Shown here: positions 38,617 to 51,586 of the stretch, piece by piece
How the letters are laid out: each line of letters starts with the position of its first letter
How positions within the stretch are numbered: the first letter of the stretch is position 1
Assembly: GCF_006716425.1 (NCBI RefSeq)
Contig: NZ_VFOZ01000001.1
Location: 2,728,001 to 2,792,000 of the forward strand
Source: Actinoallomurus bryophytorum
Lineage (GTDB): Bacteria > Actinomycetota > Actinomycetes > Streptosporangiales > Streptosporangiaceae
Length of the DNA stretch: 64,000 nt
Reading direction: 5' to 3'
The notes under the pieces: generated by a model
Databases searched by the model: none
Seen by the model: only the letters and a program-made list of their open reading frames with translations
Told to the model about the DNA's origin: nothing
Made by a program: the position numbers and the translations under genes

Positions 38617-39732
38617 CTAGATGCGAAATTCCGCTTGAGGCGTGATGCCGACTCCCTGCCGGATCTGGTCCATGTCGCTTGTCGCGTCACTGCTCCATCT
38701 ACCTAGGGCCATCTCGGCGGTGATGCCGGGGCCGAATCCCGCGATCACGCCGGTGGCACCGGCCGTCAGAGTCCCTTCCTCGAATAGCCGACGTGCCGCT
38801 TCGAGCACAACCGCGCTTGCGATATTGCCGTATTCGGTCAACGTGTCCCAGCTATGGCGGAACACACTGCTGTCGACATCGAGGAATTTGGCGAGCTCGT
38901 TCAGAATCCGCGGACCGCCGGCGTGAATGATGTAGAAGTCCAGGTTTCCGGCCTCCCAGCCGTGGTCCGCGGCGAGCTTTTGCAGCACCGGCGCCAGCGG
39001 TTTCATCGTTCCGGGCACGCGGCGGTCCAGCTGGAAGTGGAATCCAGTGGCCCGGACGGCGAAAGAGATCCACTCCTCGGTGTTCGGAATCAGGTACGAG
39101 GCATTGCGCTCCAGCTCTATGCCGACACCGCCGCTGCCCCGGACCACGGCGGCCGCGACCGCATCGCCGAACAGCCCGTCAGACAGCAGCGAACCGACAT
39201 CGGTGTCGTCCGGCTGGTAGCACAACGAGCACAGCTCGCAGGAAACGATCAGGACATTGCTGTCCGGATACGCCATACAGAAGTCATGAGCCCGATTGAT
39301 CGCCGCCCCGCCGGCCGCGCAGCCTAACTGCGCGATGGGTATCTGCCGAGTAGCGGACCGGAAGCCCATGTTGTTGATCAGCCATGCGGTCAGCGATGGC
39401 ATCAGAAATCCGGTACACGACACGTACACGATCAAATCGATGTCGCGTACCGTGACTCCCGCGTTCGCCAGGGCCTGCTCGATGACCTCGGGACATCTCT
39501 TCTTGGATTCGATCTCATAGACCCGATTGCGTTCCTCCAATCCCGGGTGATGGAGGATCTCCTCAATTGGCCGCACGATATGCCGCTTACGAACCCCCGT
39601 GTTCTTGATCAGTCGCAGCGCTAGCGGAAGCGAAGGCTTTCCGTGGTATACCCTCTCGGCGAACTGCAGGGTATCTTCCAGCGTGACGACGTATTCCGGG
39701 ACACTCACCGACGGCTTGCATAGCTTAGGCAT
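38617..39732 (-). CDS. Type III polyketide synthase, tetrahydroxynaphthalene synthase (RppA) type
   Basis: 371 residues from the ATG after GGGAGGTG. The chalcone-synthase-fold triad is present: Cys in PIAQLGCAAGGAAINRAHDF (~138), His in DFYIIHAGGPRIL (~268) and Asn in LTEYGNIASAVV (~301). RppA-like features include the YVSCTGFLMPSLTAWLIN block. RppA condenses five malonyl-CoA to 1,3,6,8-tetrahydroxynaphthalene. It is the first gene of the meroterpenoid cluster, coupled closely to the cupin and aminotransferase. Product is inferred from family and neighbours. Confidence 0.94.
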   Translation of the reverse strand: MPKLCKPSVSVPEYVVTLEDTLQFAERVYHGKPSLPLALRLIKNTGVRKRHIVRPIEEILHHPGLEERNRVYEIESKKRCPEVIEQALANAGVTVRDIDLIVYVSCTGFLMPSLTAWLINNMGFRSATRQIPIAQLGCAAGGAAINRAHDFCMAYPDSNVLIVSCELCSLCYQPDDTDVGSLLSDGLFGDAVAAAVVRGSGGVGIELERNASYLIPNTEEWISFAVRATGFHFQLDRRVPGTMKPLAPVLQKLAADHGWEAGNLDFYIIHAGGPRILNELAKFLDVDSSVFRHSWDTLTEYGNIASAVVLEAARRLFEEGTLTAGATGVIAGFGPGITAEMALGRWSSDATSDMDQIRQGVGITPQAEFRI

Positions 39733-39960
39733 GCCTCGACCCACCTCCCGTAGGATCCGCTGTCTTGAACATGGCCGACTGATTTCAGTGCTGTTGTGGG
39801 GCCATGATGAGACGGACGAGTTCACCCATAATGAGGAAAAGAACTGCGTCCCGATAGGACTATCTGAAGTCAGAGAATGGCGACGAGATCGCGATGACTA
39901 ATCTCGGGTGTGCGAGGGCCTAAAGCCGATTTGGGCACAACTGCGCCAAGGCCAAAAGCG

Positions 39961-40517: not shown

Positions 40518-40540
40518 CGTTCGACGTTGCTTGTCGAACG
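40518..40540. promoter_or_regulatory. Inverted repeat overlapping the NTPase start
   Basis: CGTTCGAC (40518-40525), spacer gttgctt, GTCGAACG (40533-40540): perfect 8-bp arms. The candidate TTG start at 40527 lies in the spacer, so binding here would block expression; the HTH-bearing product of the gene is an obvious candidate binder. Confidence 0.55.
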
Positions 40541-42728
40541 GCATAGGGGCGTCGCAAGGGGGCTGAGCGACCTGACGACCGTCAGTGCTGCCGATCTTGC
40601 GGCCGCCCAGGACTGGGCGGATTTCGGAAGACTCCTCAGTCGGCTGAAAACCGCTGTGGGCATGTCACTTAGTGAGATCCAGCGGCGAGCCAGGCGGCTC
40701 GACCTTCCGCGGGACCTTCCACCAGCGACGGTGAGCCCGACGTTGAACGGCAGGCGCCCATCAAAAGATGTGTTGTCGTGCCTGCTCCATGTATTCGGTG
40801 TACCTCAGACCGACCATGCGGAATGGCACAATACCTGGTTACGGCTAGCCGAATTGCCGTCGGCAGGGCCCATACCGCGCTTCGACGAGGTGCCGCCCCG
40901 CCAGCTCGGCATTCACGCAGCGATCACGGTGAGAGACAGCGTTGGGGAACTTCCGGAATATGTGGAGCGCGACTTCGACTATGACCTGCGAAAACGAATT
41001 TCTGTAGGGATTGAGCGGGGCTGCTTCGTTCTCCTGATCGGCCGCTCGTCATCGGGAAAGACGAGATCGCTGTACGAGGCCGTCCAGACGGTCGCCCCGA
41101 ACTGGCCGATCGTTCAGCCGTCCGGCACTGGTGACATCGTCGAGGTGCTCGAAGGGCCACGGCAGAGGGTCATCGTCTGGCTCGATGAGATGCACCGCTT
41201 CTTCGGCGCCGACCCGCGGCTGACCAAGGAGCACGTCATACGGCTGTTCCGGTTTCCCGCGATCGTGGTCGCGACGCTGTGGCCCGATGACTATCTGAAG
41301 AGGAAGACGCCACGCGGGCTGGGAGCTCCGGCCGAGTTCGAGAACGACCAGCGCCTCCTCGATCTTGCCGAGGTCGTGAGCGTGCCGGACGCGCTCTCGA
41401 TCGAGGAGCAGGCGGAGGCCGATCGCGTCGCGAAGGCCGACACCCGGATCCGGCTGGCGCTCGACGTCAAGGACGCGGGGCTCACTCAGGTGCTGGCGGC
41501 CGGACCCGATCTGCGGCACCGGTGGGAGCAGGCGCCGGATCCCTATGCCAAGGCCGTCATCAGCTTCGCCGCCGACGCGCGGCGGCTCGGGGTCCTGTCG
41601 CCGATCGTCGAGGACGCGTTCGCAACGGCCGTGGGCGGATATCTGACCCCGCCGCAGCGCGTCAACCGACCGCTGCGATGGCTTGCCGACGCCCTGGCGT
41701 TCGGCCGGCAAGAACTGCACGGCGCGGTGTCCGCCCTGGCACCTGTCGACGACGGCCATACCGGATCACTGGCCGGCTACGTCGTGGCCGACTACGTGGC
41801 TCAGCACATCCGGCGTACCGACTGTCCTCCGCGCAGTGCGTGGGAGACGCTGATCTTCGCCACCGAGGAAGCAGAAGACCTTCGTCGCCTCGCCGCCGCG
41901 GCGAACGCACGCATGCGCTACTGCCACGAGGAGCAGGCGTTGCGGCGACTCTTCGAGTTGCACGGCGAGGGAGCGGTCGAGCTCTCGGGGGTGCTCTTCC
42001 GCGGCGGACGCGAGCGAGAGGCCATGGACCTGCTCCAGCGGCATCTGGCGGAGGTTCCCCACGATCGGTCCGCCGCCGACCGGCTCGGCCGCATCGCCGC
42101 ACTCACTCATCGGATCGACGAGATGCGCGCCGCCTCGGCGAGTGGCGATCCGGAGGCCGGCCGGCGCCTGGCCGAGATGTTCGCCGACGGTGGCGAGGCC
42201 GACGCGTTGCGGATCAAGGCCGACACGGGCAGCCTCCTTGCCGAGGAGGACCTCGCGGCGCTCCTGGCGGACCGTGGGGCGGTCGACGAACTGCGTGAGC
42301 GGGCCGATCAGGGCAGGCAACCGGCCGTCGACTCCCTGGCCGAGCTCCTGGCGGCGCACGGCCGGACGGACGCGCTTCAGCAGCGTGCCGATGCCGGTGA
42401 CCAGGCGGCCTCTCGCCAGCTGGAAAAGCTTCTCACCTCGGAGACGACCGAGGACGGCGCCGCCGTCCAGGCACAGCTGGCCCATCTGCGACGCCAGATC
42501 AGCGCCGATGGAGACGAGGTGGCGGCCCGGGAACTGACCGCGCTGCTGTTCGACCTGCGGAACGAGGCCGAGCTCAGGCGCGAGGTCGACGCTGGCACCT
42601 TCCAGGCCGCCGAGCGGCTCGTGGCGTTGCTCAACGCCGACGAGGCCGTCGACCGCGTACTCGTCGACCGGCTGCGTGCGCACGGTCTCGCCGCGGACGG
42701 CGCCCCGTACACGCCACCGGAGGCGTGA
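40527..42728 (+). CDS. HTH-P-loop NTPase with C-terminal helical repeats (STAND-like)
   Basis: 733 residues from a TTG; the start is uncertain (ATG at 40662 is the next ATG in frame but would cut the HTH). Residues ~30-95 resemble an HTH (FGRLLSRLKTAVGMSLSEIQ...TVSPTLNGRRPSKDVLSCLL). A P-loop NTPase follows: Walker A GRSSSGKTRS (~171) and Walker B VIVWLDEMHRFFG (~215). Residues ~540-730 are ~33-residue helical repeats of the form A...LAELLA.HGR.D.L..RADAGD. This sensor-switch-repeat layout resembles STAND proteins. It heads a coupled four-gene operon. Confidence 0.78.
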   Translation: MLVERHRGVARGLSDLTTVSAADLAAAQDWADFGRLLSRLKTAVGMSLSEIQRRARRLDLPRDLPPATVSPTLNGRRPSKDVLSCLLHVFGVPQTDHAEWHNTWLRLAELPSAGPIPRFDEVPPRQLGIHAAITVRDSVGELPEYVERDFDYDLRKRISVGIERGCFVLLIGRSSSGKTRSLYEAVQTVAPNWPIVQPSGTGDIVEVLEGPRQRVIVWLDEMHRFFGADPRLTKEHVIRLFRFPAIVVATLWPDDYLKRKTPRGLGAPAEFENDQRLLDLAEVVSVPDALSIEEQAEADRVAKADTRIRLALDVKDAGLTQVLAAGPDLRHRWEQAPDPYAKAVISFAADARRLGVLSPIVEDAFATAVGGYLTPPQRVNRPLRWLADALAFGRQELHGAVSALAPVDDGHTGSLAGYVVADYVAQHIRRTDCPPRSAWETLIFATEEAEDLRRLAAAANARMRYCHEEQALRRLFELHGEGAVELSGVLFRGGREREAMDLLQRHLAEVPHDRSAADRLGRIAALTHRIDEMRAASASGDPEAGRRLAEMFADGGEADALRIKADTGSLLAEEDLAALLADRGAVDELRERADQGRQPAVDSLAELLAAHGRTDALQQRADAGDQAASRQLEKLLTSETTEDGAAVQAQLAHLRRQISADGDEVAARELTALLFDLRNEAELRREVDAGTFQAAERLVALLNADEAVDRVLVDRLRAHGLAADGAPYTPPEA

Positions 42729-43783
42729 TGGGAGACGCGATCACGACGCTGCGCGATGGCGAGGCCGCCTGGCACGACCGGCTGGCGAGCGTACCGACCG
42801 ATCGAGTGGTCCACCTCTCGGGTGTCTCGGCCGAGGACATCGCCACGGCGGCCGCCCGATTCAGCGATCTTCCGGCGGCGGTCGTGGTGACCCCGTCGGC
42901 AGCCGGCTCGGTGGCCGCCTTCGTGGCCGAGGTGCTCGACGCCCTCGACACGGTCGCCCGGCGGCTCCTCCCCGGATGGCTGCCCGAAGCGGATGAGCTG
43001 GACGGTCCGCAGGGTGCCGCCCTGGCGGCGATCCGGGCCGTGGCCATCGAACGGGCGCGCGTCGTGGGTTGTTCCAGTACGTTCCTCGCCGATCTGGCGG
43101 AACGGGCGCTGACCGGCCGGCCTTCACGGGCACGGCTGCGGCCCGAGCTACGGGCCTCGGGACTTGCCCGCGTCATCGCGACGGGATTCCGGCGCGGCCG
43201 GCTGGTATTGACCATGCCGATCGAGACGGAGCCCGGGGATCCGCCGGTCCGTGATGTCGTGGTGGCGGGTGCGGAGTGGCTCGCCGATCGCGGCCGGCTG
43301 GGCGTGTGGCTCACCGGCACCGAATCGCCCGGTCCGGAGCGCATCGGCACCCTGCACCTCGTACCCGTCCCGCAGGAGACGGCGGTGACGTCATCGGGCG
43401 AGGCCGCGACGGTGGTCGGCCGGCCGCATCCGCGGAGCACCGTCGAGGCCGCGCTCGAGGCGGTACTGGCGCGACAGGAGTGGGCGTACGGCCGGATCTG
43501 GAACGGGACCTACCAGCCGACATTGGTACGGAGCCCGATCCGGCCCGACCTGCTGTGGCCCGCCGAACGCGTGGTGGTGGAGCTGGACGGGCTGGAGCAC
43601 TGCCGGCCCGAGCAGTACGACACCGATCGCGTACGCGACGTGCGGTTGCAACTGGATGGCTACGCCGTTCTCAGATTCACCAACGCGCGCGTGAAGCACG
43701 ACGTGCACGCGGTGGCGGCGCAGATCGAACACCTCATTCGGACACGAAGGCATGACATGACGAAAGGACAGCAGGGTGGCTGA
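42728..43783 (+). CDS. Protein with C-terminal DUF559/Vsr-like nuclease fold
   Basis: 351 residues; ATG at 42728 shares its A with the upstream TGA, and GTG at 42725 is an alternative. Residues 1-225 are not recognised (they begin WHDRLASVPTDRVVHLSGVS). Residues ~235-345 look like a DUF559/Vsr-type PD-(D/E)xK fold: STVEAALEAVLARQ, RPDLLWPAERVVVELDGLEH (Asp and Glu-x-Asp), then YDTDRVRDVRLQLDGYAVLR and a late Val/Ala-rich helix. It may cut or nick DNA. Coupling to the NTPase and to the winged-helix gene (8-bp overlap) argues for one functional system. Confidence 0.75.
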   Translation: MGDAITTLRDGEAAWHDRLASVPTDRVVHLSGVSAEDIATAAARFSDLPAAVVVTPSAAGSVAAFVAEVLDALDTVARRLLPGWLPEADELDGPQGAALAAIRAVAIERARVVGCSSTFLADLAERALTGRPSRARLRPELRASGLARVIATGFRRGRLVLTMPIETEPGDPPVRDVVVAGAEWLADRGRLGVWLTGTESPGPERIGTLHLVPVPQETAVTSSGEAATVVGRPHPRSTVEAALEAVLARQEWAYGRIWNGTYQPTLVRSPIRPDLLWPAERVVVELDGLEHCRPEQYDTDRVRDVRLQLDGYAVLRFTNARVKHDVHAVAAQIEHLIRTRRHDMTKGQQGG

Positions 43784-44399
43784 CAACCTCACCCCGGCGG
43801 AGAGTGCAACCCTCATGGTGTTGATGGCGGAGGCACGAGAGATCTCCAACCCGGAGTTGAACGAGCGCTACCGGATAACACTGACCGGCAAGAGCCGGCA
43901 GAAGCTCAACAACCTGGGTTACGTCAAAACTTGGAAAGTGGGCCAGGCCTTCGTTCACGTCCTGGATGACAAGGGCTGGGATCGCGTGCACCAAGGGCTG
44001 AACTTCGACAGTCCCCGGGCCCGAGCGCTGGGTGCGGCATTGAGCGCGTTGCACGACAACCTCCGGGAGCGGGTGCTGGAGCACGGCGCGTACCGGCGGT
44101 TCGGGGAGATGTTCGCCCACACGGCCGAGGCGCCGGTCGACGATCTCGAGACACGGATTCGCACGGCTTACGGCTCGCTCGCCCCGCGTCCCGGTGCGTG
44201 GCTCAGGCACACCGACGTTCGCCGGAAACTCGCCGATGTGCCGAGTGAAGCGCTCGACCAGGCCTTCCTCGCACTGAGCCGGGCGGAGGACGTGGACATG
44301 ATGGGTGAGGCCAACCAGAAGATCCTCACCGCCGAGGATCGCCGCAACGCGGTGCGGGTCGGCGGACAGGACACGCATCTGATCGCTATCGGAATCTGA
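43776..44399 (+). CDS. Winged-helix protein of the four-gene operon
   Basis: 207 residues from GTG, preceded by AAAGGA, overlapping the nuclease-like gene by 8 bp. The N-terminal ~70 residues look like a winged helix (LTPAESATLMVLMAEAREIS, LNERYRITLTGKSRQKLNNL, then AFVHVLDDKGWDRV). A second small helical module at ~140-200 (HTDVRRKLADVPSEALDQAF) is followed by a short strand end. No catalytic motif. It may bind DNA or adapt between the nuclease and the large ATPase. I do not recognise a named family. Confidence 0.7.
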   Translation: MADNLTPAESATLMVLMAEAREISNPELNERYRITLTGKSRQKLNNLGYVKTWKVGQAFVHVLDDKGWDRVHQGLNFDSPRARALGAALSALHDNLRERVLEHGAYRRFGEMFAHTAEAPVDDLETRIRTAYGSLAPRPGAWLRHTDVRRKLADVPSEALDQAFLALSRAEDVDMMGEANQKILTAEDRRNAVRVGGQDTHLIAIGI

Positions 44400-47300
44400 T
44401 GAACGAAGACGAACGCAAGGCGCTGGAGGCGCTGAGGTTCGACTGGGCACCGGTACCCGACGATGTCTGGCGCCCGTCGCCGTACCACGTCGAAGGGCTG
44501 CACCGGGGAGTCGTCAAGGATGTGCTGGCGGCCATGGCCGACGCGAAGGCGAGCAAGGACGCCAGTCCGCTCGGCTTGGTCTTAAAGGGCCGGCGCGGCT
44601 CGGGCAAGACTCACCTGCTCGGCTGGGTCCGCCAGCAGATCCAGGACCAGGGCGGCTACTTCTTCCTGGTGAGCCTGCTCGACGCCAAGGGGTTCTGGGA
44701 CAGCGTCCTGGCCTCCATGACCGAGGGCCTCTTCCGGCCGGTGCCGGGCAGCGATACCCAGCTGCGCCTGTTCCTTCGGAGGCTCTCGTCTGTGGTCAGC
44801 GCGCCCCGATCGGCGCGGCGAGCCGTCATGGGAGAGACCGAACTGACCACGGCGGCGCTGGACGCCTTCGTCCGCGGGCTGAGCGACTACGACCGCCTGG
44901 TCGCGCGCGAGTGTGACGACACCGTCCGCGCGCTCGCGCTGCACGTATCGGATGACCTCGCGCATCGCGAGCTCGCGGAGAGCTACTTCAGCTGCGAGCC
45001 GGAGGCCGAGACAGGCGAGCGCGCCCAGTGGCGCATGCGGCGGAGGCCGCGCACCGCGCAGGAGATCGTCCGCGAGCTGTCCAAACTGTTCGCGCTGACA
45101 GGCCCCACCGTGATGGCCGTCGACCAGATCGACACGTTGATCTCACAGTCGTCGGCGGCATCCCACGAGCGCCGGCAGACCGAGCCGTCGGACACCGAGG
45201 ACTGGGCGCAGTCGCTGGTGCTGGAACAGATCGCGCACGGGTTGATGGCGCTGCGCCAGGACACCCGCCGGACGCTGACCCTCGTGGCGTGCATTCCCCC
45301 ATCCTGGATGCTCATCAAGAACAGAGCGACCGACACCGTGGGCGACCGATTCCGCGAGCCCGAGGAATTGCGCCCCATCAGAGATCCGGCCATCGCACGG
45401 AGCATCGTCGAGAAGCGGTTCACCCACAGCTACGGCCAGGTCCCGTTCTCACCGCCCTACCCATCATGGCCGATCCGTCCGGAGACATTCGAGACCGCCA
45501 CAAGTTTCACTCCGCGCCAGTTGCTCATTGAGATCGACAGGCATGTCAGGAAGTGTCTGCTGAATAACGAGGTCCTAGAGCTCGGGCGCCTGGAAGAACC
45601 ATCGAGCAGTGAGGCAAGTGCGGCACCGCTCGATTCCCCTGACATCTCGGATGAGGTACGCGAACGATTGGACGCACGCTTCGACGCGCTGAAGGACGAA
45701 GCGGACGTCGGGGCACCGCTCGCACCGAACCGCGAGGACACAGTCATCCCAGGCCTGCTTTCGGCCGGGCTGATGGCATGGATCATCGAGCGGGGGATGG
45801 CCGACGAGTCCTTTGGCCAGGACGGTCCGCCGAGCCCCAAACCGGCACTCCACGCGAGACTTCGGCGCACGCTCGACGAGGACACGGAGGACCAGGCGCA
45901 TTGGTCCTTCCGGGCGATCAGTGCCGGGCACCACGGCGTCGCCGCGTTGCACCGCATCAAGCGCGCGGTCACGGCGGCTGGTGTCGAGTATCAGGTGCCC
46001 AAGCGCAGGCTCTACTTCCTGCGCAACGGCCCATGGACCGGTGACAAGACACTCAGCGTCATCGAGGAGCTCAAGTCCAAGAACACGGCGACGCTGGCCC
46101 TCGAAGAGTCCGATCTCCGTACGCTGGCCGCGCTAAAAGTCCTGTTCGACGAGGCTCCTGTCGACCTCACGGCGTGGTTGGTGCGGCGCAAGCCGGCCAG
46201 CGGAATCCAGATCTTCCGCCAGGCCATGGCGGATCTGGCGGACCCGCCGATGCGGTCGGAGGCGGACGAGCCGACGAGCGCACCGTTGGACGCATCGGCC
46301 GCTCCGAGGCGTACGAGCGGTGCATCGCAGCAGCCGGTGCCGGCGCTGACGGTGGGTCACGACTACACGAGCGGCGAGCCGGCCCGGCTGGCCCTCGAGT
46401 CACTGCGCAAGCACGTCACGATCTTCGCCGGCTCCGGCTCGGGCAAGACGGTGCTGATCCGCCGCCTGGTCGAGGAGTGCGCGCTCCAGGGCGTGTCCGC
46501 CATCGTGCTGGATCCGAACAACGACCTGGCCCGGCTCGGCGATCCGTGGCCGGCGCCGCCGGCGGCCTGGGGACCCGGTGATGCGGACAAGGCCGCCGAC
46601 TACATCGCCGGCACCGAGGTCGTGGTGTGGACGCCGAGGCGGGAGACCGGACGGCCGCTGAGCTTCCAACCACTGCCGGACTTCAAGAGCGCGCGCGATG
46701 ACCCGGATGAGTTCAACGAGGCCGTGGACTCGGCGGTGGCCGCGCTGATCCCCCGGGCACGGCTGGACAGCCGGGCCGCGAAGGCGCACCTCGGCCTCGC
46801 CGTCCTGCGACGGGCGGTTGACCACTACGGCCGGCGCGGCGGCAGCACGTTGCGCGGCCTGATCGAAACGCTCGCCGACCTACCGTACGGGGTCAGCGAG
46901 CTCGCCGACGCCGAAAAGATCGCCGGCGACCTGGCTCAAACGCTCAGGGCGTCGGTGGACAACGACCCGATGTTCGGCGGCGACAGCACGCCCCTGGACC
47001 CAGCGGTCCTGCTGACACCCTCCAGCGGAAAGCGGGCGCGCGTCTCGGTGATCAGCCTGGTCGGCCTGCCCTCCGACGAAATGCGTCAGAGCTTCGTCAA
47101 CCAGTTGCAGATGGCGCTCTTCGCGTACATCAAGAAGCACCCGGCCGGTGATCGGCCGCTGCTCGGCCTCTTCGTGATGGACGAGGCGCAGACGCTCGCG
47201 CCGTCCGGGACCATGACGGCGTGTACGCAGAGCACCCTCGCTCTCGCCTCGCAGGCACGCAAGTACGGGCTCGGGCTGGTGTTCGCCACCCAGGCGCCGA

Positions 47301-47566
47301 AGGGGCTGCACAACCGCATTCCGGGCAACGCTGCCACCCAGTTCTACGGCCTGTTGAACAGCCCGATCCAGATCGAAGCCGCCCGGGAGATGGCCAAGGC
47401 CAAAGGCGGAGACATCCCCGATGTGTCGCGGCTGCGCTCGGGCGAGTTCTACGTCGCGGCCGAGGGGGAGGCACCGCAGAAGATCCGCACGCCACTGTGC
47501 CTCAGCCATCATCCGAAGAGCCCGTTGACGAATGAGGAGGTCCTCGACCGCGCTCGGGTCCACTGA
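44399..47566 (+). CDS. Large double-ATPase with C-terminal HerA/FtsK-type domain
   Basis: 1055 residues; its ATG shares a base with the upstream TGA. Domain 1 (~20-390) is an AAA/ORC-like ATPase: Walker A KGRRGSGKTHLLGW (~63), Walker B VMAVDQIDTLIS (~238). A linker with a helical module follows (~400-640). Domain 2 (~650-1055) is of the HerA/FtsK superfamily: Walker A FAGSGSGKTVLIRRL (~678), IVLDPNNDLARLGD, Walker B GLFVMDEAQTLAPSG (~924), and GLGLVFATQAPKGLHNRIPG, the sensor segment shared with DNA translocases. It probably moves or grips DNA. Fusion of the two ATPases is unusual. Confidence 0.85.
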   Translation: MNEDERKALEALRFDWAPVPDDVWRPSPYHVEGLHRGVVKDVLAAMADAKASKDASPLGLVLKGRRGSGKTHLLGWVRQQIQDQGGYFFLVSLLDAKGFWDSVLASMTEGLFRPVPGSDTQLRLFLRRLSSVVSAPRSARRAVMGETELTTAALDAFVRGLSDYDRLVARECDDTVRALALHVSDDLAHRELAESYFSCEPEAETGERAQWRMRRRPRTAQEIVRELSKLFALTGPTVMAVDQIDTLISQSSAASHERRQTEPSDTEDWAQSLVLEQIAHGLMALRQDTRRTLTLVACIPPSWMLIKNRATDTVGDRFREPEELRPIRDPAIARSIVEKRFTHSYGQVPFSPPYPSWPIRPETFETATSFTPRQLLIEIDRHVRKCLLNNEVLELGRLEEPSSSEASAAPLDSPDISDEVRERLDARFDALKDEADVGAPLAPNREDTVIPGLLSAGLMAWIIERGMADESFGQDGPPSPKPALHARLRRTLDEDTEDQAHWSFRAISAGHHGVAALHRIKRAVTAAGVEYQVPKRRLYFLRNGPWTGDKTLSVIEELKSKNTATLALEESDLRTLAALKVLFDEAPVDLTAWLVRRKPASGIQIFRQAMADLADPPMRSEADEPTSAPLDASAAPRRTSGASQQPVPALTVGHDYTSGEPARLALESLRKHVTIFAGSGSGKTVLIRRLVEECALQGVSAIVLDPNNDLARLGDPWPAPPAAWGPGDADKAADYIAGTEVVVWTPRRETGRPLSFQPLPDFKSARDDPDEFNEAVDSAVAALIPRARLDSRAAKAHLGLAVLRRAVDHYGRRGGSTLRGLIETLADLPYGVSELADAEKIAGDLAQTLRASVDNDPMFGGDSTPLDPAVLLTPSSGKRARVSVISLVGLPSDEMRQSFVNQLQMALFAYIKKHPAGDRPLLGLFVMDEAQTLAPSGTMTACTQSTLALASQARKYGLGLVFATQAPKGLHNRIPGNAATQFYGLLNSPIQIEAAREMAKAKGGDIPDVSRLRSGEFYVAAEGEAPQKIRTPLCLSHHPKSPLTNEEVLDRARVH

Positions 47567-47640: not shown

Positions 47641-49032
47641 TCAACCGGGTTGGCCGTCCAGAGGTTCGGTGGTCGCGCGGAGGTCGGTGAACTCCCGTAC
47701 GGCGCGGCTGGAGCGATGGCGGTTGAGTGCCGTGCCGAGGCGGGCGAGTTCCGAACGGACCCGTCCTGAGCCGAATCCGCGGGAAAGTGTGAGGGCCCGG
47801 GTGGCGACGGCGCCCGCCTGCTCCACGTCTCCCGTGAGGAGGTGGGCGCGGGCGGTCCGGGTGAGATAGAGGGCGTGGTCGCGGGGGAAGGTCTCCGGCG
47901 AATGGCCCGCGCGCGCCGCCGTGTCGAAAGCGCGTAGCGCCTGGTGCGGCCGGCCGAGGCTCAGCTCCGAGGACGCCGCGAGCATCTCCAGCTCACCCTC
48001 GGTGAGCCAGTAGAGCCAGGACGGGTCATCGTCATGTGATCCGAGCGCATGACAATGGCGCGCCTTGTCGAAGTCGCGCAGGCACCCGTTCAGTCCGTGG
48101 GAGGTCTTGGAGAGGGCACGGGCCCGGCGGCTGTAGAGCATCGCGCGCAGCCGTGGTATGGCGCGGCCGTCGCAGTGGTTCAGCGCCGCGTCGACGAGCT
48201 TCACGGCGTCCGTGGGGTCGCCCTCGGAGTAGGACTGGATGGCCATGAACGCCAGGATGTTGGCTCCGGTCACCTCGTCGCCGGCCATGGCCGAGGCGCG
48301 GAGCGCCGTCACGTAATAGGACTGGGCGGCCGAATGCAGACCTGAGTCGAAATACAGCCAGCCGCAGATTCTGGCCGCCTCTCCGAGTGCCTGGAAAAGG
48401 CGGCGTCCGGTCGTTTCTCCGTAGGTCGAATCGTGGGCGATCGAGCTCAGCACCTCGAAATTCGCCAGTGCGATGCGGCGGGTCAGCTCTCCGCCGAGAA
48501 CGTCGTCGAGGCGGCTGATCCTGGCGAGCGGGTCGGTGAACGCCTCGATCATTTCCTCGGTGACACGTCCCCTGCCGTTCTTGATCGTCTGGACCGGCGC
48601 CGACAGCGCGCGGGACCATTCCCCCACAAGTGCGTCAAGTCCGGCGCCTGCCGTCCACGGCGTGCGGCGGCGGTCGGCGAACCGGCCTCGCGCCGCACCG
48701 GGCAGAGCGGCGAGCGTGCCCTCCAGGTTCCACGGCTCGCGTAACAACGCCCGGTCGGCGGGGAAGGCCAACGACAGCCAGGACGGCCAGCCCAGGTCGT
48801 ACACGGAGTCCTCGGGGACACCGTGCAGGTCGGCCATGGCGAGCTGGGCCGAAAGCTGGGGGACCGAAGCACCCGACTCCCATCGGATGACCTTCTCCCG
48901 CCGTATCGCCATCGCGCCGAACCCGAGCGCCCGATGCCGGCGGTTCACCTGGTTGAGGTATTCCACGGCGGACAGGCCGCCCAGCGCCGCGCGCAGCGCG
49001 GCCAGCGGGTGACGATAGGTGAGTTCGGCCAT
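47641..49032 (-). CDS. BldD/XRE-like HTH regulator with TPR-like C-terminal region
   Basis: 463 residues from the ATG at 49032; AAGGGA is upstream at a long spacing, and a longer start at 49074 is possible. Residues ~5-60 hold the HTH region (HPLAALRAALGGLSAVEYLN, then RREKVIRWESGASVPQLSAQ). The rest is helical with TPR-like pairs (LRASAMAGDEVTGANILAFM, LYSRRARALSKTS). This is a common type of Streptomyces-group regulator of unknown signal. It faces away from the lipid operon and might control it or itself. Downstream it converges with the ATPase operon. Confidence 0.82.
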   Translation of the reverse strand: MAELTYRHPLAALRAALGGLSAVEYLNQVNRRHRALGFGAMAIRREKVIRWESGASVPQLSAQLAMADLHGVPEDSVYDLGWPSWLSLAFPADRALLREPWNLEGTLAALPGAARGRFADRRRTPWTAGAGLDALVGEWSRALSAPVQTIKNGRGRVTEEMIEAFTDPLARISRLDDVLGGELTRRIALANFEVLSSIAHDSTYGETTGRRLFQALGEAARICGWLYFDSGLHSAAQSYYVTALRASAMAGDEVTGANILAFMAIQSYSEGDPTDAVKLVDAALNHCDGRAIPRLRAMLYSRRARALSKTSHGLNGCLRDFDKARHCHALGSHDDDPSWLYWLTEGELEMLAASSELSLGRPHQALRAFDTAARAGHSPETFPRDHALYLTRTARAHLLTGDVEQAGAVATRALTLSRGFGSGRVRSELARLGTALNRHRSSRAVREFTDLRATTEPLDGQPG

Positions 49033-49312
49033 GTCACAGGGGTCCCTTCGCCCACAGAGGTCGCGCGACATCACGGTAAGTCACCACAACCTCCCTCATC
49101 GTAACGAGGCAACGCGACGCAACGCCCGGCCGGTGGATTTTGATTTTGCGGCGTGTTGACATGTTGTCCAGCGACCGAGCCATCAATTCCGCAAATGGAC
49201 TTTCGACCATTGGGCCGCGCCATCGAGCAATGCATCCGCATGAACGTAACGCGTGCGCCTGGATATCCGCGTAGAAGGGTGGGCTTCTGAAATGGGGAGG
49301 TCACGGCCCACA

Positions 49313-51586
49313 ATGGCAGCACGGCCTCGCGGCGTGCGTTCGGCACTGTTCCGCTGTGGTGCCATGGCGGCGGAGTACCGATGGACCGTCCTTCTCGTCT
49401 GGGGGCTGCTCGGCCTCGCCTCGCTCGCACTGCTGCCCTCGCTGCTGGGCGCGCTCGGTGCGCCACCGCTCAGCGTGCGCGACGCCGAGTCCGCCCGTAC
49501 GACCACGGCGCTCCGCCGGGACATGCCGGTGCTGGGGAGCGAGCAGATGATGCTCGTCTTCCACTCGGACCGGCTGACGGCCGGGACGCCGCTCTACCGG
49601 TCGACGGTCGCGGCCACCGAACAGGCGCTGACGCGACAGCCCGGTGTGATCATCACGAAGGCGTTCCCGCCCGCCGTCCGCGACGTCTCGGCGGCTCATC
49701 CGATCGGCCTGTTCGAGGTGCGCGGACTGTCCTACCGCGATCCGCACAACAGCTACGTGTTCGTCTCGGCCTACGGCGACGACCGGGAGCGGCTTGCCCG
49801 CTACCCCGCGCAGCGCGCGGCGGCCGAGCGCACGGCCCGGCAGGCGTCAGGCGGCCGGGTGGCCGCCTTCCTGGTCGGCGCCACTCCCGTGAACGCCGAC
49901 GTCAGGACGGTCGAGATCTCCGGCGTCCGTGTCATCGAGGGCGTGGCCGTCGTGCTGTCGTTCCTGGTGCTGTGGCTGGGGCTGGGCACTCTGGGGGCGG
50001 CGGTCCTGACCCTGGCGCTGTCCGGATCGACGATCCTGGTGACCCTTGGCGCCATCGGTGTCCTGTCCCGGGTGACGACGTTCGACGTCTTCGTACTGAC
50101 GGCGGTCTCGGTCGTCGGCCTGGGGATCGGCATCGACTACGCGCTGCTCATCGTCAGCCGCTTCCGGGAGGAGCTCGCGGCCGCGCACGGCGCCGCGGAC
50201 CGTACGACGGCGGCGGGGACCGCCGTGGCGACGGCGGGACGTACGGTCGTGTACTCGGCGATGATCGTGGCGGTCGCGGCGGCGAGCCTGTTCGCCGTCA
50301 AGGTGTCCATCTTCACCGAGCTGGCGCTGGCGACCCTCCTGGTGATCGCCGTCGCGGTGGCCGCCTCGCTCACCCTGCTGCCCGCCGCTCTTTCCCTACG
50401 CCACGGCCTGCTCGACGCCGGGCCGCTGCCGTGGCGGCGCGGCCGGCCGTACGAGGCCGCCTTCGCCGACGACGGACGGTGGGCACGCTGGGCCGGGCAC
50501 CTGATGCGGCGCCCGTGGCCCTACCTCCTCGCCGGCACCGCGACGCTGCTCCTGTGCGCCGTGCCGGCGCTGCACCTGCGGCTCGGCGCCGACCTCCAGC
50601 GCAGTGTGCTCGCGGGGACGCCGAGCGGCACGGGGCTCGCCCTGCTGGAGGCCGACTCCTTCGCCGGAGCGACCGGCACGCTCCTCATCGACGTCCGGCA
50701 TCCGCGCGGTGCGCCGGCCCCGGACGTGACCCGGCTGGTGGCCGCCCTCGAACGCGACCCCCAGGTCGACGCCGTCGCCGTGGGCAAGGAGCGGTCCGCC
50801 GCGGTCCTCCTGGTCGTGCCCCGCGAGGCCCCCGACCGGCCGCGGACGGCGGCCCTCGTACGCCGGGTTCGCGGTGAGATCGTGCCGTCGACCGTGACGG
50901 ACGACTCGTCCCGGGTGCTGGTCGGCGGGGTCAGCGCCCTGCTCGTGGACGCCCACGACGAGCTCGTACGGAAACTGTGGTGGGTGCTGACGTTCGTCCT
51001 GGCGTCGACGCTGCTGATCCTCGCCGCCATGATGCGCAGCCTGTTGATCCCGCTGAAGGCGGTGGTCATGAACCTCCTGACCTGCGCGAGCACACTCGGC
51101 CTGTTCGTCGTGACCTTCCAGTGGGGCAGGGGGGAGCGTGTCCTCGGGTTCCACGGCGACGGGATCATCCAGGTCTACCTGCCGCTGCTGCTGTTCGCGA
51201 TCGTGTTCGGCGTCTCCACCGACTACGAGGTCTTCCTGGTCCGCCGCGTCCAGGAGATCTACCACCGCACCGGGGACAACACCGCGTCGGTCGCCGCCGG
51301 CGTGCAGCGCACCGCCCGGCCCATCTTCGTCGCGGCGGCCGTCCTGGTCGCCGTCTCGGCCGCCCTGCTGCCGTCGCCCGTCGTCGAGCTCAAGGAGTTC
51401 GGCTTCGCCCTGCTGGTCGCCGTCGTCATCGACGCCACGATCGTCCGTCTGGTCCTCGTCCCCGCGGTGATGCGGGTCCTCGGGCGCTGGAACTGGTGGT
51501 GGCCGCGCCCGCTGCGGACCGTACTCCCAAGGCACCCACCCGTACCCGACCCCGTAGGTACCGGCCCCGTACGCGCCGACCGCTGA
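49313..51586 (+). CDS. MMPL/RND-family lipid transporter
   Basis: 757 residues, a two-times-six TM MMPL protein. Large loops follow TM1 (~30-200) and TM7. TM blocks include VVLSFLVLWLGLGTLGAAVL, SVVGLGIGIDYALLIVSRFR (the GxxxDY motif, ~265) and FGVSTDYEVFLVRRVQEIYH (second GxxxDY, ~645), and LTLGAIGVLSR-type helices. MMPL proteins move lipids or small molecules using the proton gradient via the paired Asp/Tyr. The start could also be at 49292; codon use favours 49313. A TTGACA at 49156 is a candidate -35. It heads the lipid operon and probably exports its product. Confidence 0.9.
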   Translation: MAARPRGVRSALFRCGAMAAEYRWTVLLVWGLLGLASLALLPSLLGALGAPPLSVRDAESARTTTALRRDMPVLGSEQMMLVFHSDRLTAGTPLYRSTVAATEQALTRQPGVIITKAFPPAVRDVSAAHPIGLFEVRGLSYRDPHNSYVFVSAYGDDRERLARYPAQRAAAERTARQASGGRVAAFLVGATPVNADVRTVEISGVRVIEGVAVVLSFLVLWLGLGTLGAAVLTLALSGSTILVTLGAIGVLSRVTTFDVFVLTAVSVVGLGIGIDYALLIVSRFREELAAAHGAADRTTAAGTAVATAGRTVVYSAMIVAVAAASLFAVKVSIFTELALATLLVIAVAVAASLTLLPAALSLRHGLLDAGPLPWRRGRPYEAAFADDGRWARWAGHLMRRPWPYLLAGTATLLLCAVPALHLRLGADLQRSVLAGTPSGTGLALLEADSFAGATGTLLIDVRHPRGAPAPDVTRLVAALERDPQVDAVAVGKERSAAVLLVVPREAPDRPRTAALVRRVRGEIVPSTVTDDSSRVLVGGVSALLVDAHDELVRKLWWVLTFVLASTLLILAAMMRSLLIPLKAVVMNLLTCASTLGLFVVTFQWGRGERVLGFHGDGIIQVYLPLLLFAIVFGVSTDYEVFLVRRVQEIYHRTGDNTASVAAGVQRTARPIFVAAAVLVAVSAALLPSPVVELKEFGFALLVAVVIDATIVRLVLVPAVMRVLGRWNWWWPRPLRTVLPRHPPVPDPVGTGPVRADR

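What the first reader, a model, noticed from the sequence alone, without database searches (positions are those of the whole stretch)
40527..47566. Undescribed four-gene NTPase-nuclease-winged helix-HerA operon, candidate defence system
Four genes are locked together by overlaps (shared base, 8 bp, shared base) and combine an HTH/P-loop/repeat sensor, a DUF559/Vsr-like nuclease fold, a winged-helix protein and a 1055-residue double ATPase with an ORC/AAA domain plus a HerA/FtsK domain. HerA-type translocases paired with nucleases, and STAND NTPases, are known building blocks of anti-phage systems (HerA-SIR2 and HerA-DUF4297; Avs), but I know of no system with this set. DNA restriction, plasmid exclusion or DNA repair are alternatives.
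Basis: partly seen in the sequence, partly recalled or inferred. Interest (0 to 1): 0.9.

Follow-up and report, generated by a model that had tools for sequence, protein, structure and literature searches.

The report
Modular DNA-pump defence operon in actinomycetes
Four tightly joined bacterial genes appear to build a DNA-gripping, DNA-pumping machine with a swappable weapon (here a DNA-cutting enzyme), probably protecting actinomycetes against viruses or plasmids; the general class was predicted in print, this particular arrangement was not found described, and no experiment on it is known to us.

Summary
The four genes overlap as described, but they are not the conserved unit. That unit is C-D (probable winged-helix protein plus ORC/Cdc6-like AAA+ - HerA double ATPase), mostly with B, a DUF559 nuclease. 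Of 84 loci, all found through D, C adjoins D in 84 and B is present in 60. In 297 genomes of the order, 76 of 77 with B also hold D; 73 of 77 B hits lie within 6 kb of D. A-B-C-D occurs in 4 of 84; A is common without C-D. The 24 loci without B hold STAND/WD40 proteins (13), AbiU-type genes (3), A (3), TIR/SEFIR genes (2) or nothing recognised (3). This suggests a defence core with exchangeable effectors. Closest printed class: HerA-FtsK capture systems (PMC10853773), which already links Orc/CDC6 genes to STAND and TIR. ORC/Cdc6-like and HerA folds are supported; the class's inactive-nuclease insert is undecided. No match was found in phage records or viral contigs; PADLOC gives only HerA-type matches. 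Flanking genes show no clear defence enrichment. New variant of a known kind; function inferred.

The parts
40527..42728 (+). Gene A: HTH - STAND-like P-loop NTPase - TPR-like repeats; optional sensor/effector module. Walker A about 41040-41063, Walker B about 41178-41189. Start codon uncertain.
   Evidence: ORF; invariant Walker motifs in 7 of 7; weak HTH_31 and TPR matches in relative L005
42725..43783 (+). Gene B: N-terminal P-loop-like fold without a conserved Walker A (about 42743-43363) plus DUF559 PD-(D/E)xK nuclease domain (about 43430-43753); probable effector
43776..44399 (+). Gene C: small, fast-evolving protein, probably two winged-helix domains; half of the conserved core
   Evidence: beside D in 84 of 84 loci; weak winged-helix matches in 6 of 53 members; not modelled
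44399..47566 (+). Gene D: ORC/Cdc6-like AAA+ ATPase fused to a HerA/FtsK translocase; the core motor
   Evidence: ORF; AF2 pLDDT 84.3, pTM 0.58; VIA-align; Pfam
44414..45604 (+). D residues 6-402: ORC/Cdc6-like AAA+; Walker A 44588-44611; Walker B DQID 45122-45133 with invariant Gln where a catalytic Glu is usual
45650..46189 (+). D residues 418-597: middle domain; order of helices and strands (a-b-b-b-a-b) would fit a restriction-endonuclease fold; identity undecided
   Evidence: DSSP on the AF2 model; no convincing sequence match
46334..47536 (+). D residues 646-1046: HerA/FtsK translocase; Walker A 46430-46450, Walker B 47180-47185, Arg finger R954 47258-47260, sensor Gln Q965 47291-47293

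Best explanation
B-C-D (with A added in this lineage) is probably an anti-invader system of the HerA/FtsK-capture type. Proposed steps: (1) The winged-helix protein C and the ORC/Cdc6-like ring of D bind DNA; its natural Glu-to-Gln change at Walker B would favour a long-lived ATP-bound clamp. (2) The HerA ring of D pumps the captured DNA. (3) This feeds or triggers an exchangeable effector; in this operon the effector is the DUF559 nuclease B, joined through a probably NTPase-dead STAND-like domain. (4) A, a STAND-like NTPase with HTH and repeats, acts as an added sensor, regulator or second effector. Shown here: gene order, domain identities of B and D, invariant catalytic residues, locking of B to C-D, and exchange of partners. 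Inferred: DNA binding, pumping, activation, cleavage, the target, and that the outcome is protection.
Against: No experiment. Genes flanking the module show no clear defence enrichment: in 140 of 297 near genes the commonest PADLOC models match 3-4 proteins and are MkoA and largely kinase-type models; in 140 of 502 farther genes at most 3. More models match in the near set (54 against 16), but many are redundant kinase models and two of the near genes are from the Ppr system of L070. In 8 Micromonospora loci B-C-D keeps the same neighbours, as a vertically inherited set would. Partner exchanges are few and clade-wise. Three Pseudonocardia loci have C-D with no recognised partner. C is winged-helix only by weak matches. 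AAA+ rows of TnsC tie with most ORC rows. The congener comparison gave no clean empty site.
Confidence: 0.6

Rival explanations
1. DNA-repair or end-processing machine: a HerA-type translocase with a nuclease, as HerA-NurA, processing broken chromosomal ends.
Against: In other clades C-D has AbiU-type, TIR/SEFIR or STAND/WD40 genes beside it in place of the nuclease; present in 102 of 297 genomes of the order, 2 of 8 of the genus; an ORC-like domain is not part of HerA-NurA (recalled).
Confidence: 0.15
2. Plasmid or conjugation exclusion: the HerA/TrwB/VirB4-like motor recognises incoming conjugative DNA, and the nuclease degrades it; phages are not the main target. (Overlaps with the best explanation in mechanism; differs in target.)
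Against: VirB4/TrwB similarity follows from the shared FtsK-HerA fold; no direct test.
Confidence: 0.2
3. The A-B-C-D set is one dedicated four-component defence system in which A is the essential sensor.
For: All four genes overlap in the window and in L003, L004, L007; A sits before C-D without B in 3 more loci.
Against: B-C-D without A in 56 of 84 loci; A-family match in 145 of 297 genomes, and 17 of 20 returned A loci show no C or D in the flank held, about 1.5 kb.
Confidence: 0.1
4. Selfish or mobile-element module (a transfer or maintenance unit), not a defence.
For: Found on one large MOBP plasmid (Methylobacterium, L084) and inside a ribosomal-protein gene cluster in Tsukamurella (L083).
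Against: No tRNA found in the window; no match in phage records or viral contigs and only 3 of 72,556 plasmid records. Repeats were sought only within each flank, not between flanks, so border repeats are not excluded.
Confidence: 0.07

Closest known systems
HerA-FtsK capture systems with Orc/CDC6 (Rakesh, Aravind, Krishnan 2024, PMC10853773)
   Same: Orc/CDC6 AAA+ ATPase, HerA/FtsK, active REase-fold nuclease and a fast-evolving winged-helix protein in one neighbourhood, in single or multiple polypeptides; proposed to intercept invader DNA. Related Orc/CDC6 genes (away from HerA) are already reported there fused to STAND or TIR or coupled to KAP (section 22)
   Different: Nuclease is DUF559 with a STAND-like N-terminal domain (DUF559: 0 occurrences in the main text); the ORC-HerA fusion protein with AbiU-type, TIR/SEFIR or STAND/WD40 genes in place of the nuclease was not seen in the parts read; inactive-REase insert not established
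DndFGH (DndH)
   Different: No dnd family hit among A-D; no ORC/Cdc6 domain in DndH in the passages read
MADS (mad8, PADLOC PDLC04140)
   Same: HerA-type ATPase domain matches mad8 at 5.6e-21
   Different: Match covers only D 653-1025; no other mad model hits A, B, C or D
HerA-SIR2 (Nezha) and HerA-DUF4297
   Different: NCBIfam HerA antiphage models far below cut-off (15.1 against 800, 11.4 against 850); effector is DUF559; ORC-like domain present
BREX-related capture (BRC) system (PMC12839542, passages read)
   Same: HerA/FtsK plus ORC/Cdc6 ATPase plus wHTH plus STAND
   Different: No PglZ, DUF6079 or DUF4007 hit among A-D

Membership tests
HerA-FtsK capture systems (Orc/CDC6-coupled) | Orc/CDC6-clade AAA+ ATPase | tested here: met
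HerA-FtsK capture systems (Orc/CDC6-coupled) | HerA/FtsK ATPase with sensor-1 Gln and upstream Arg finger | tested here: met
HerA-FtsK capture systems (Orc/CDC6-coupled) | Inactive REase inserted between the AAA+ core and the C-terminal wHTH | tested here: inconclusive
   D 418-597 has a fitting order of helices and strands, but no convincing sequence match; its fold was not tested alone, other domains filled the list
HerA-FtsK capture systems (Orc/CDC6-coupled) | C-terminal wHTH on the ORC protein | tested here: inconclusive
   Helices 570-609 precede the linker in the model; fold not resolved
HerA-FtsK capture systems (Orc/CDC6-coupled) | Active REase-fold nuclease in the operon | tested here: met
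[quoted passage not shown]
   C mean column identity 38% against 53% for D; weak winged-helix matches 6 of 53
HerA-FtsK capture systems (Orc/CDC6-coupled) | HerA domain in DndH-related clades 2, 4 or 5 | not tested
   The paper's tree and supplement were not available
MADS | Other mad genes in the operon (their kinds are recalled, not read) | tested here: not met
   Only mad8 matches, on D; no mad hit for A, B or C; the rest of the window was not scanned with PADLOC
HerA-SIR2 / HerA-DUF4297 | HerA antiphage family and SIR2 or DUF4297 partner | tested here: not met
   NF042943 15.1 of 800 bits, NF042944 11.4 of 850; no SIR2 or DUF4297 hit among A-D
HerA-NurA repair | NurA nuclease partner in the operon | tested here: not met
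   No NurA hit among A-D; partner nuclease is DUF559
DndFGH | DndF, DndG and DndH architectures | tested here: not met
   No dnd model hit among A-D; only the HerA fold is shared

The most novel reading that the evidence does not exclude
C-D is a general immune hub: an ORC-like DNA clamp, locked in the ATP state by an invariant Walker-B Glu-to-Gln change, fused to a HerA pump, which senses invading DNA and licenses whichever effector is plugged in (DUF559 nuclease, AbiU-type, TIR/SEFIR, STAND/WD40, STAND A). A single sensor-motor core would then serve both DNA-cutting and cell-suicide defences.
Probability: 0.35. Interest if true: 0.8.

Novelty: new variant of a known kind. Interest (0 to 1): 0.6.

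Why it matters
If true, about a third of the sampled genomes in this order (102 of 297 with a D relative) carry an immune core that the defence library used here does not name as a system. It would extend the predicted HerA-FtsK capture systems to AbiU-type and SEFIR partners, and give a testable case for how an ORC-like ring and a DNA pump convert recognition of foreign DNA into activation of unrelated effectors.

Tried and rejected

Considered and rejected: A-B-C-D as the conserved unit; MADS, Nezha, Dnd, BRC and HerA-NurA membership (see Membership tests).

Sampling limits: the search for related loci kept the best 80 of 237 relatives of D. Loci L001 (the window's own copy) and L002 (weak DUF87 relative) were left out of counts. 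Genes were called by a script of my own and clustered by single linkage; some starts and a few split genes (for example D in L007 and L030) are imperfect. The D tree is a quick one, with long branches for L083 and L084 that may be misplaced. Partner identities were scanned in one representative locus per family and carried to the others by clustering. Genome lists are cut at the end.

Full report
Observation. Four + strand genes lie at 40527-42728 (A), 42725/42728-43783 (B), 43776-44399 (C) and 44399-47566 (D), joined by a shared base (if B starts at ATG 42728), an 8 bp overlap and a shared base. The start of A is uncertain.

What travels together. From 237 relatives of D (best 80 kept), plus three records of the plasmid collection and the window, I called genes in 84 loci. 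C is next to D in 84 of 84, and B is present in 60 of 84 (56 without A, 4 with A). All loci were chosen through D, so the reverse was asked in 297 genomes of the order: D in 102 (E<=1e-40, 25 of 62 genera), B in 77 (E<=1e-12), and 76 of these 77 also have D (hypergeometric 7e-47); 73 of 77 best B hits lie within 6 kb of D on the same contig; of the other four, all in draft assemblies of about 60 to 810 contigs, three hold D on another contig and one (G172) has no listed D. A-family proteins are matched in 145 of 297 genomes (E<=1e-3); of 20 loci returned, 3 (the window's own among them) have C or D in the flank held, about 1.5 kb. In the window's genus D is found in 2 of 8 genomes, the other copy without a B match.

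Exchange of partners. The other 24 of 84 loci hold: STAND/WD40 proteins (13, of which 11 with the Trypco1-family gene; Pfam scanned in L019: WD40 4.8e-75, AAA_16 5.2e-8, nSTAND1 1.2e-5 below cut-off, Trypco1 2.5e-18; the N-terminal part looks trypsin-like by eye, no call shows it); A without B (3); an AIPR/AbiU-family gene 2, 12 and 24 bp downstream of D (3; scanned in L044: Pfam AIPR 4.1e-40, PADLOC AbiU 3.5e-115 over nearly the whole length); TIR and SEFIR genes with a ParA-like protein (2; scanned in L067); and none recognised (3, Pseudonocardia). On a quick maximum-likelihood tree of the 84 D proteins the seven labels need 6 changes, the least possible, against 27.0 when shuffled. Exchange therefore seems to have happened, but rarely and clade by clade. 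L070 also has a pPIWI-RE (Ppr) system directly upstream. These partners are the main evidence for defence.

Evidence against. Flanking genes beyond the module are not clearly defence-rich: of 140 near genes (drawn from 297) the commonest PADLOC models match 3-4 (MkoA and largely kinase-type models), of 140 farther genes (from 502) at most 3; the near set matches more models (54 against 16), but many are redundant kinase models and two near genes are from the Ppr system of L070. In 8 Micromonospora loci the set keeps its neighbours. No match was found in 50,697 phage records or, by peptide patterns, in viral contigs, which is neutral or mildly favourable to a host function. Plasmid hits are 3 of 72,556 records, and two of these look chromosomal (an 11.85 Mb 'plasmid', and one that carries the ribosomal-protein cluster); the third is a 1.57 Mb Methylobacterium plasmid. 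A search for an empty site in congener G214 found homology starting just after D (window 47663) but a rearranged other flank.

How it most likely works. By analogy with the model in PMC10853773 (abstract, passages, section 22 read), winged-helix and ORC-like parts find and clamp invader DNA, the HerA ring pumps it, and the nuclease cuts it. The exchange with AbiU-type and TIR/SEFIR genes suggests that C-D is the sensor-motor and the partner the effector, so activation and not mere delivery may be the shared step. A would be an added sensor or effector. All of this is inference. DNA repair and conjugation blocking remain possible.

Comparison with print. The closest class is 'HerA-FtsK capture systems': Orc/CDC6 with an inactive REase insert, active REase, HerA/FtsK and wHTH (PMC10853773). 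ORC/Cdc6-like AAA+ (with the TnsC caveat), HerA and a REase-fold nuclease are met; the inactive REase, the C-terminal wHTH and the wHTH protein are inconclusive; clade placement was not tested. The same section already reports related Orc/CDC6 genes, away from HerA, fused to STAND or TIR domains or coupled to KAP NTPases, so the idea of exchanging partners around Orc/CDC6 is not wholly new; I lowered interest from 0.62 to 0.6 and the interest of the novel case from 0.82 to 0.8 for this. DUF559 and trypsin do not occur in its main text; its supplement could not be read, so the locus may already be in its tables. PMC12839542 (passages, part of the reference list) describes a different HerA system (BRC) and has no DUF559, AIPR or MADS in the main text. 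PMC7159879 (passages) names Trypco domains as neighbours of trypsin-like peptidases in conflict systems. PMC8195603 (passages) gave nothing on this set. Searches of the open-licence library for this combination listed no paper whose title, abstract or passages seen describe it. PADLOC 2.0.0 gives for A-D only matches on D: mad8, weaker HerA models and marginal AAA models.

Verdict. Known as a class, new as a variant: a widespread actinomycete core with exchangeable effectors, probably defensive, untested.

Noticed in passing
47641-49074 (-): NsdA-family TPR regulator directly downstream, convergent with D (NCBIfam 5.5e-85); with the next gene (49364-51586) it is conserved in one congener (G214, 75% and 83%), in which no D match was found.
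   Followed up: partly
L083:13293-18261: In Tsukamurella tyrosinosolvens B-C-D sits inside the ribosomal-protein cluster between rplN and rpsQ, with a VapB/PIN pair and a DEAD/DEAH-box helicase; the record is labelled a plasmid but carries ribosomal genes.
   Followed up: no
45122-45133 (D residues 242-245): The ORC-like Walker B has an invariant Gln where a catalytic Glu is usual (68 of 68), a natural version of the classic ATP-trap change (recalled).
   Followed up: partly
L070:826-9180: A pPIWI-RE (Ppr) defence system lies directly upstream of C-D-AbiU in Lentzea.
   Followed up: partly
L019:4598-8990 and 12 more loci: A large STAND/WD40 gene, with a Trypco1-family gene in 11 of 13 loci, is transcribed away from C-D; its N-terminus looks trypsin-like by eye.
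   Followed up: partly
L064, L077, L079: Pseudonocardia C-D loci with no recognised partner: perhaps a partner elsewhere, an unrecognised one, or a remnant.
   Followed up: no
L008 and L081: Dactylosporangium siamense carries two copies of the core with different partners (A-C-D and B-C-D).
   Followed up: no
38617-39825 (-): A gene that looks by eye like a type III polyketide synthase (name recalled, no call) and other biosynthesis-like genes lie upstream.
   Followed up: no
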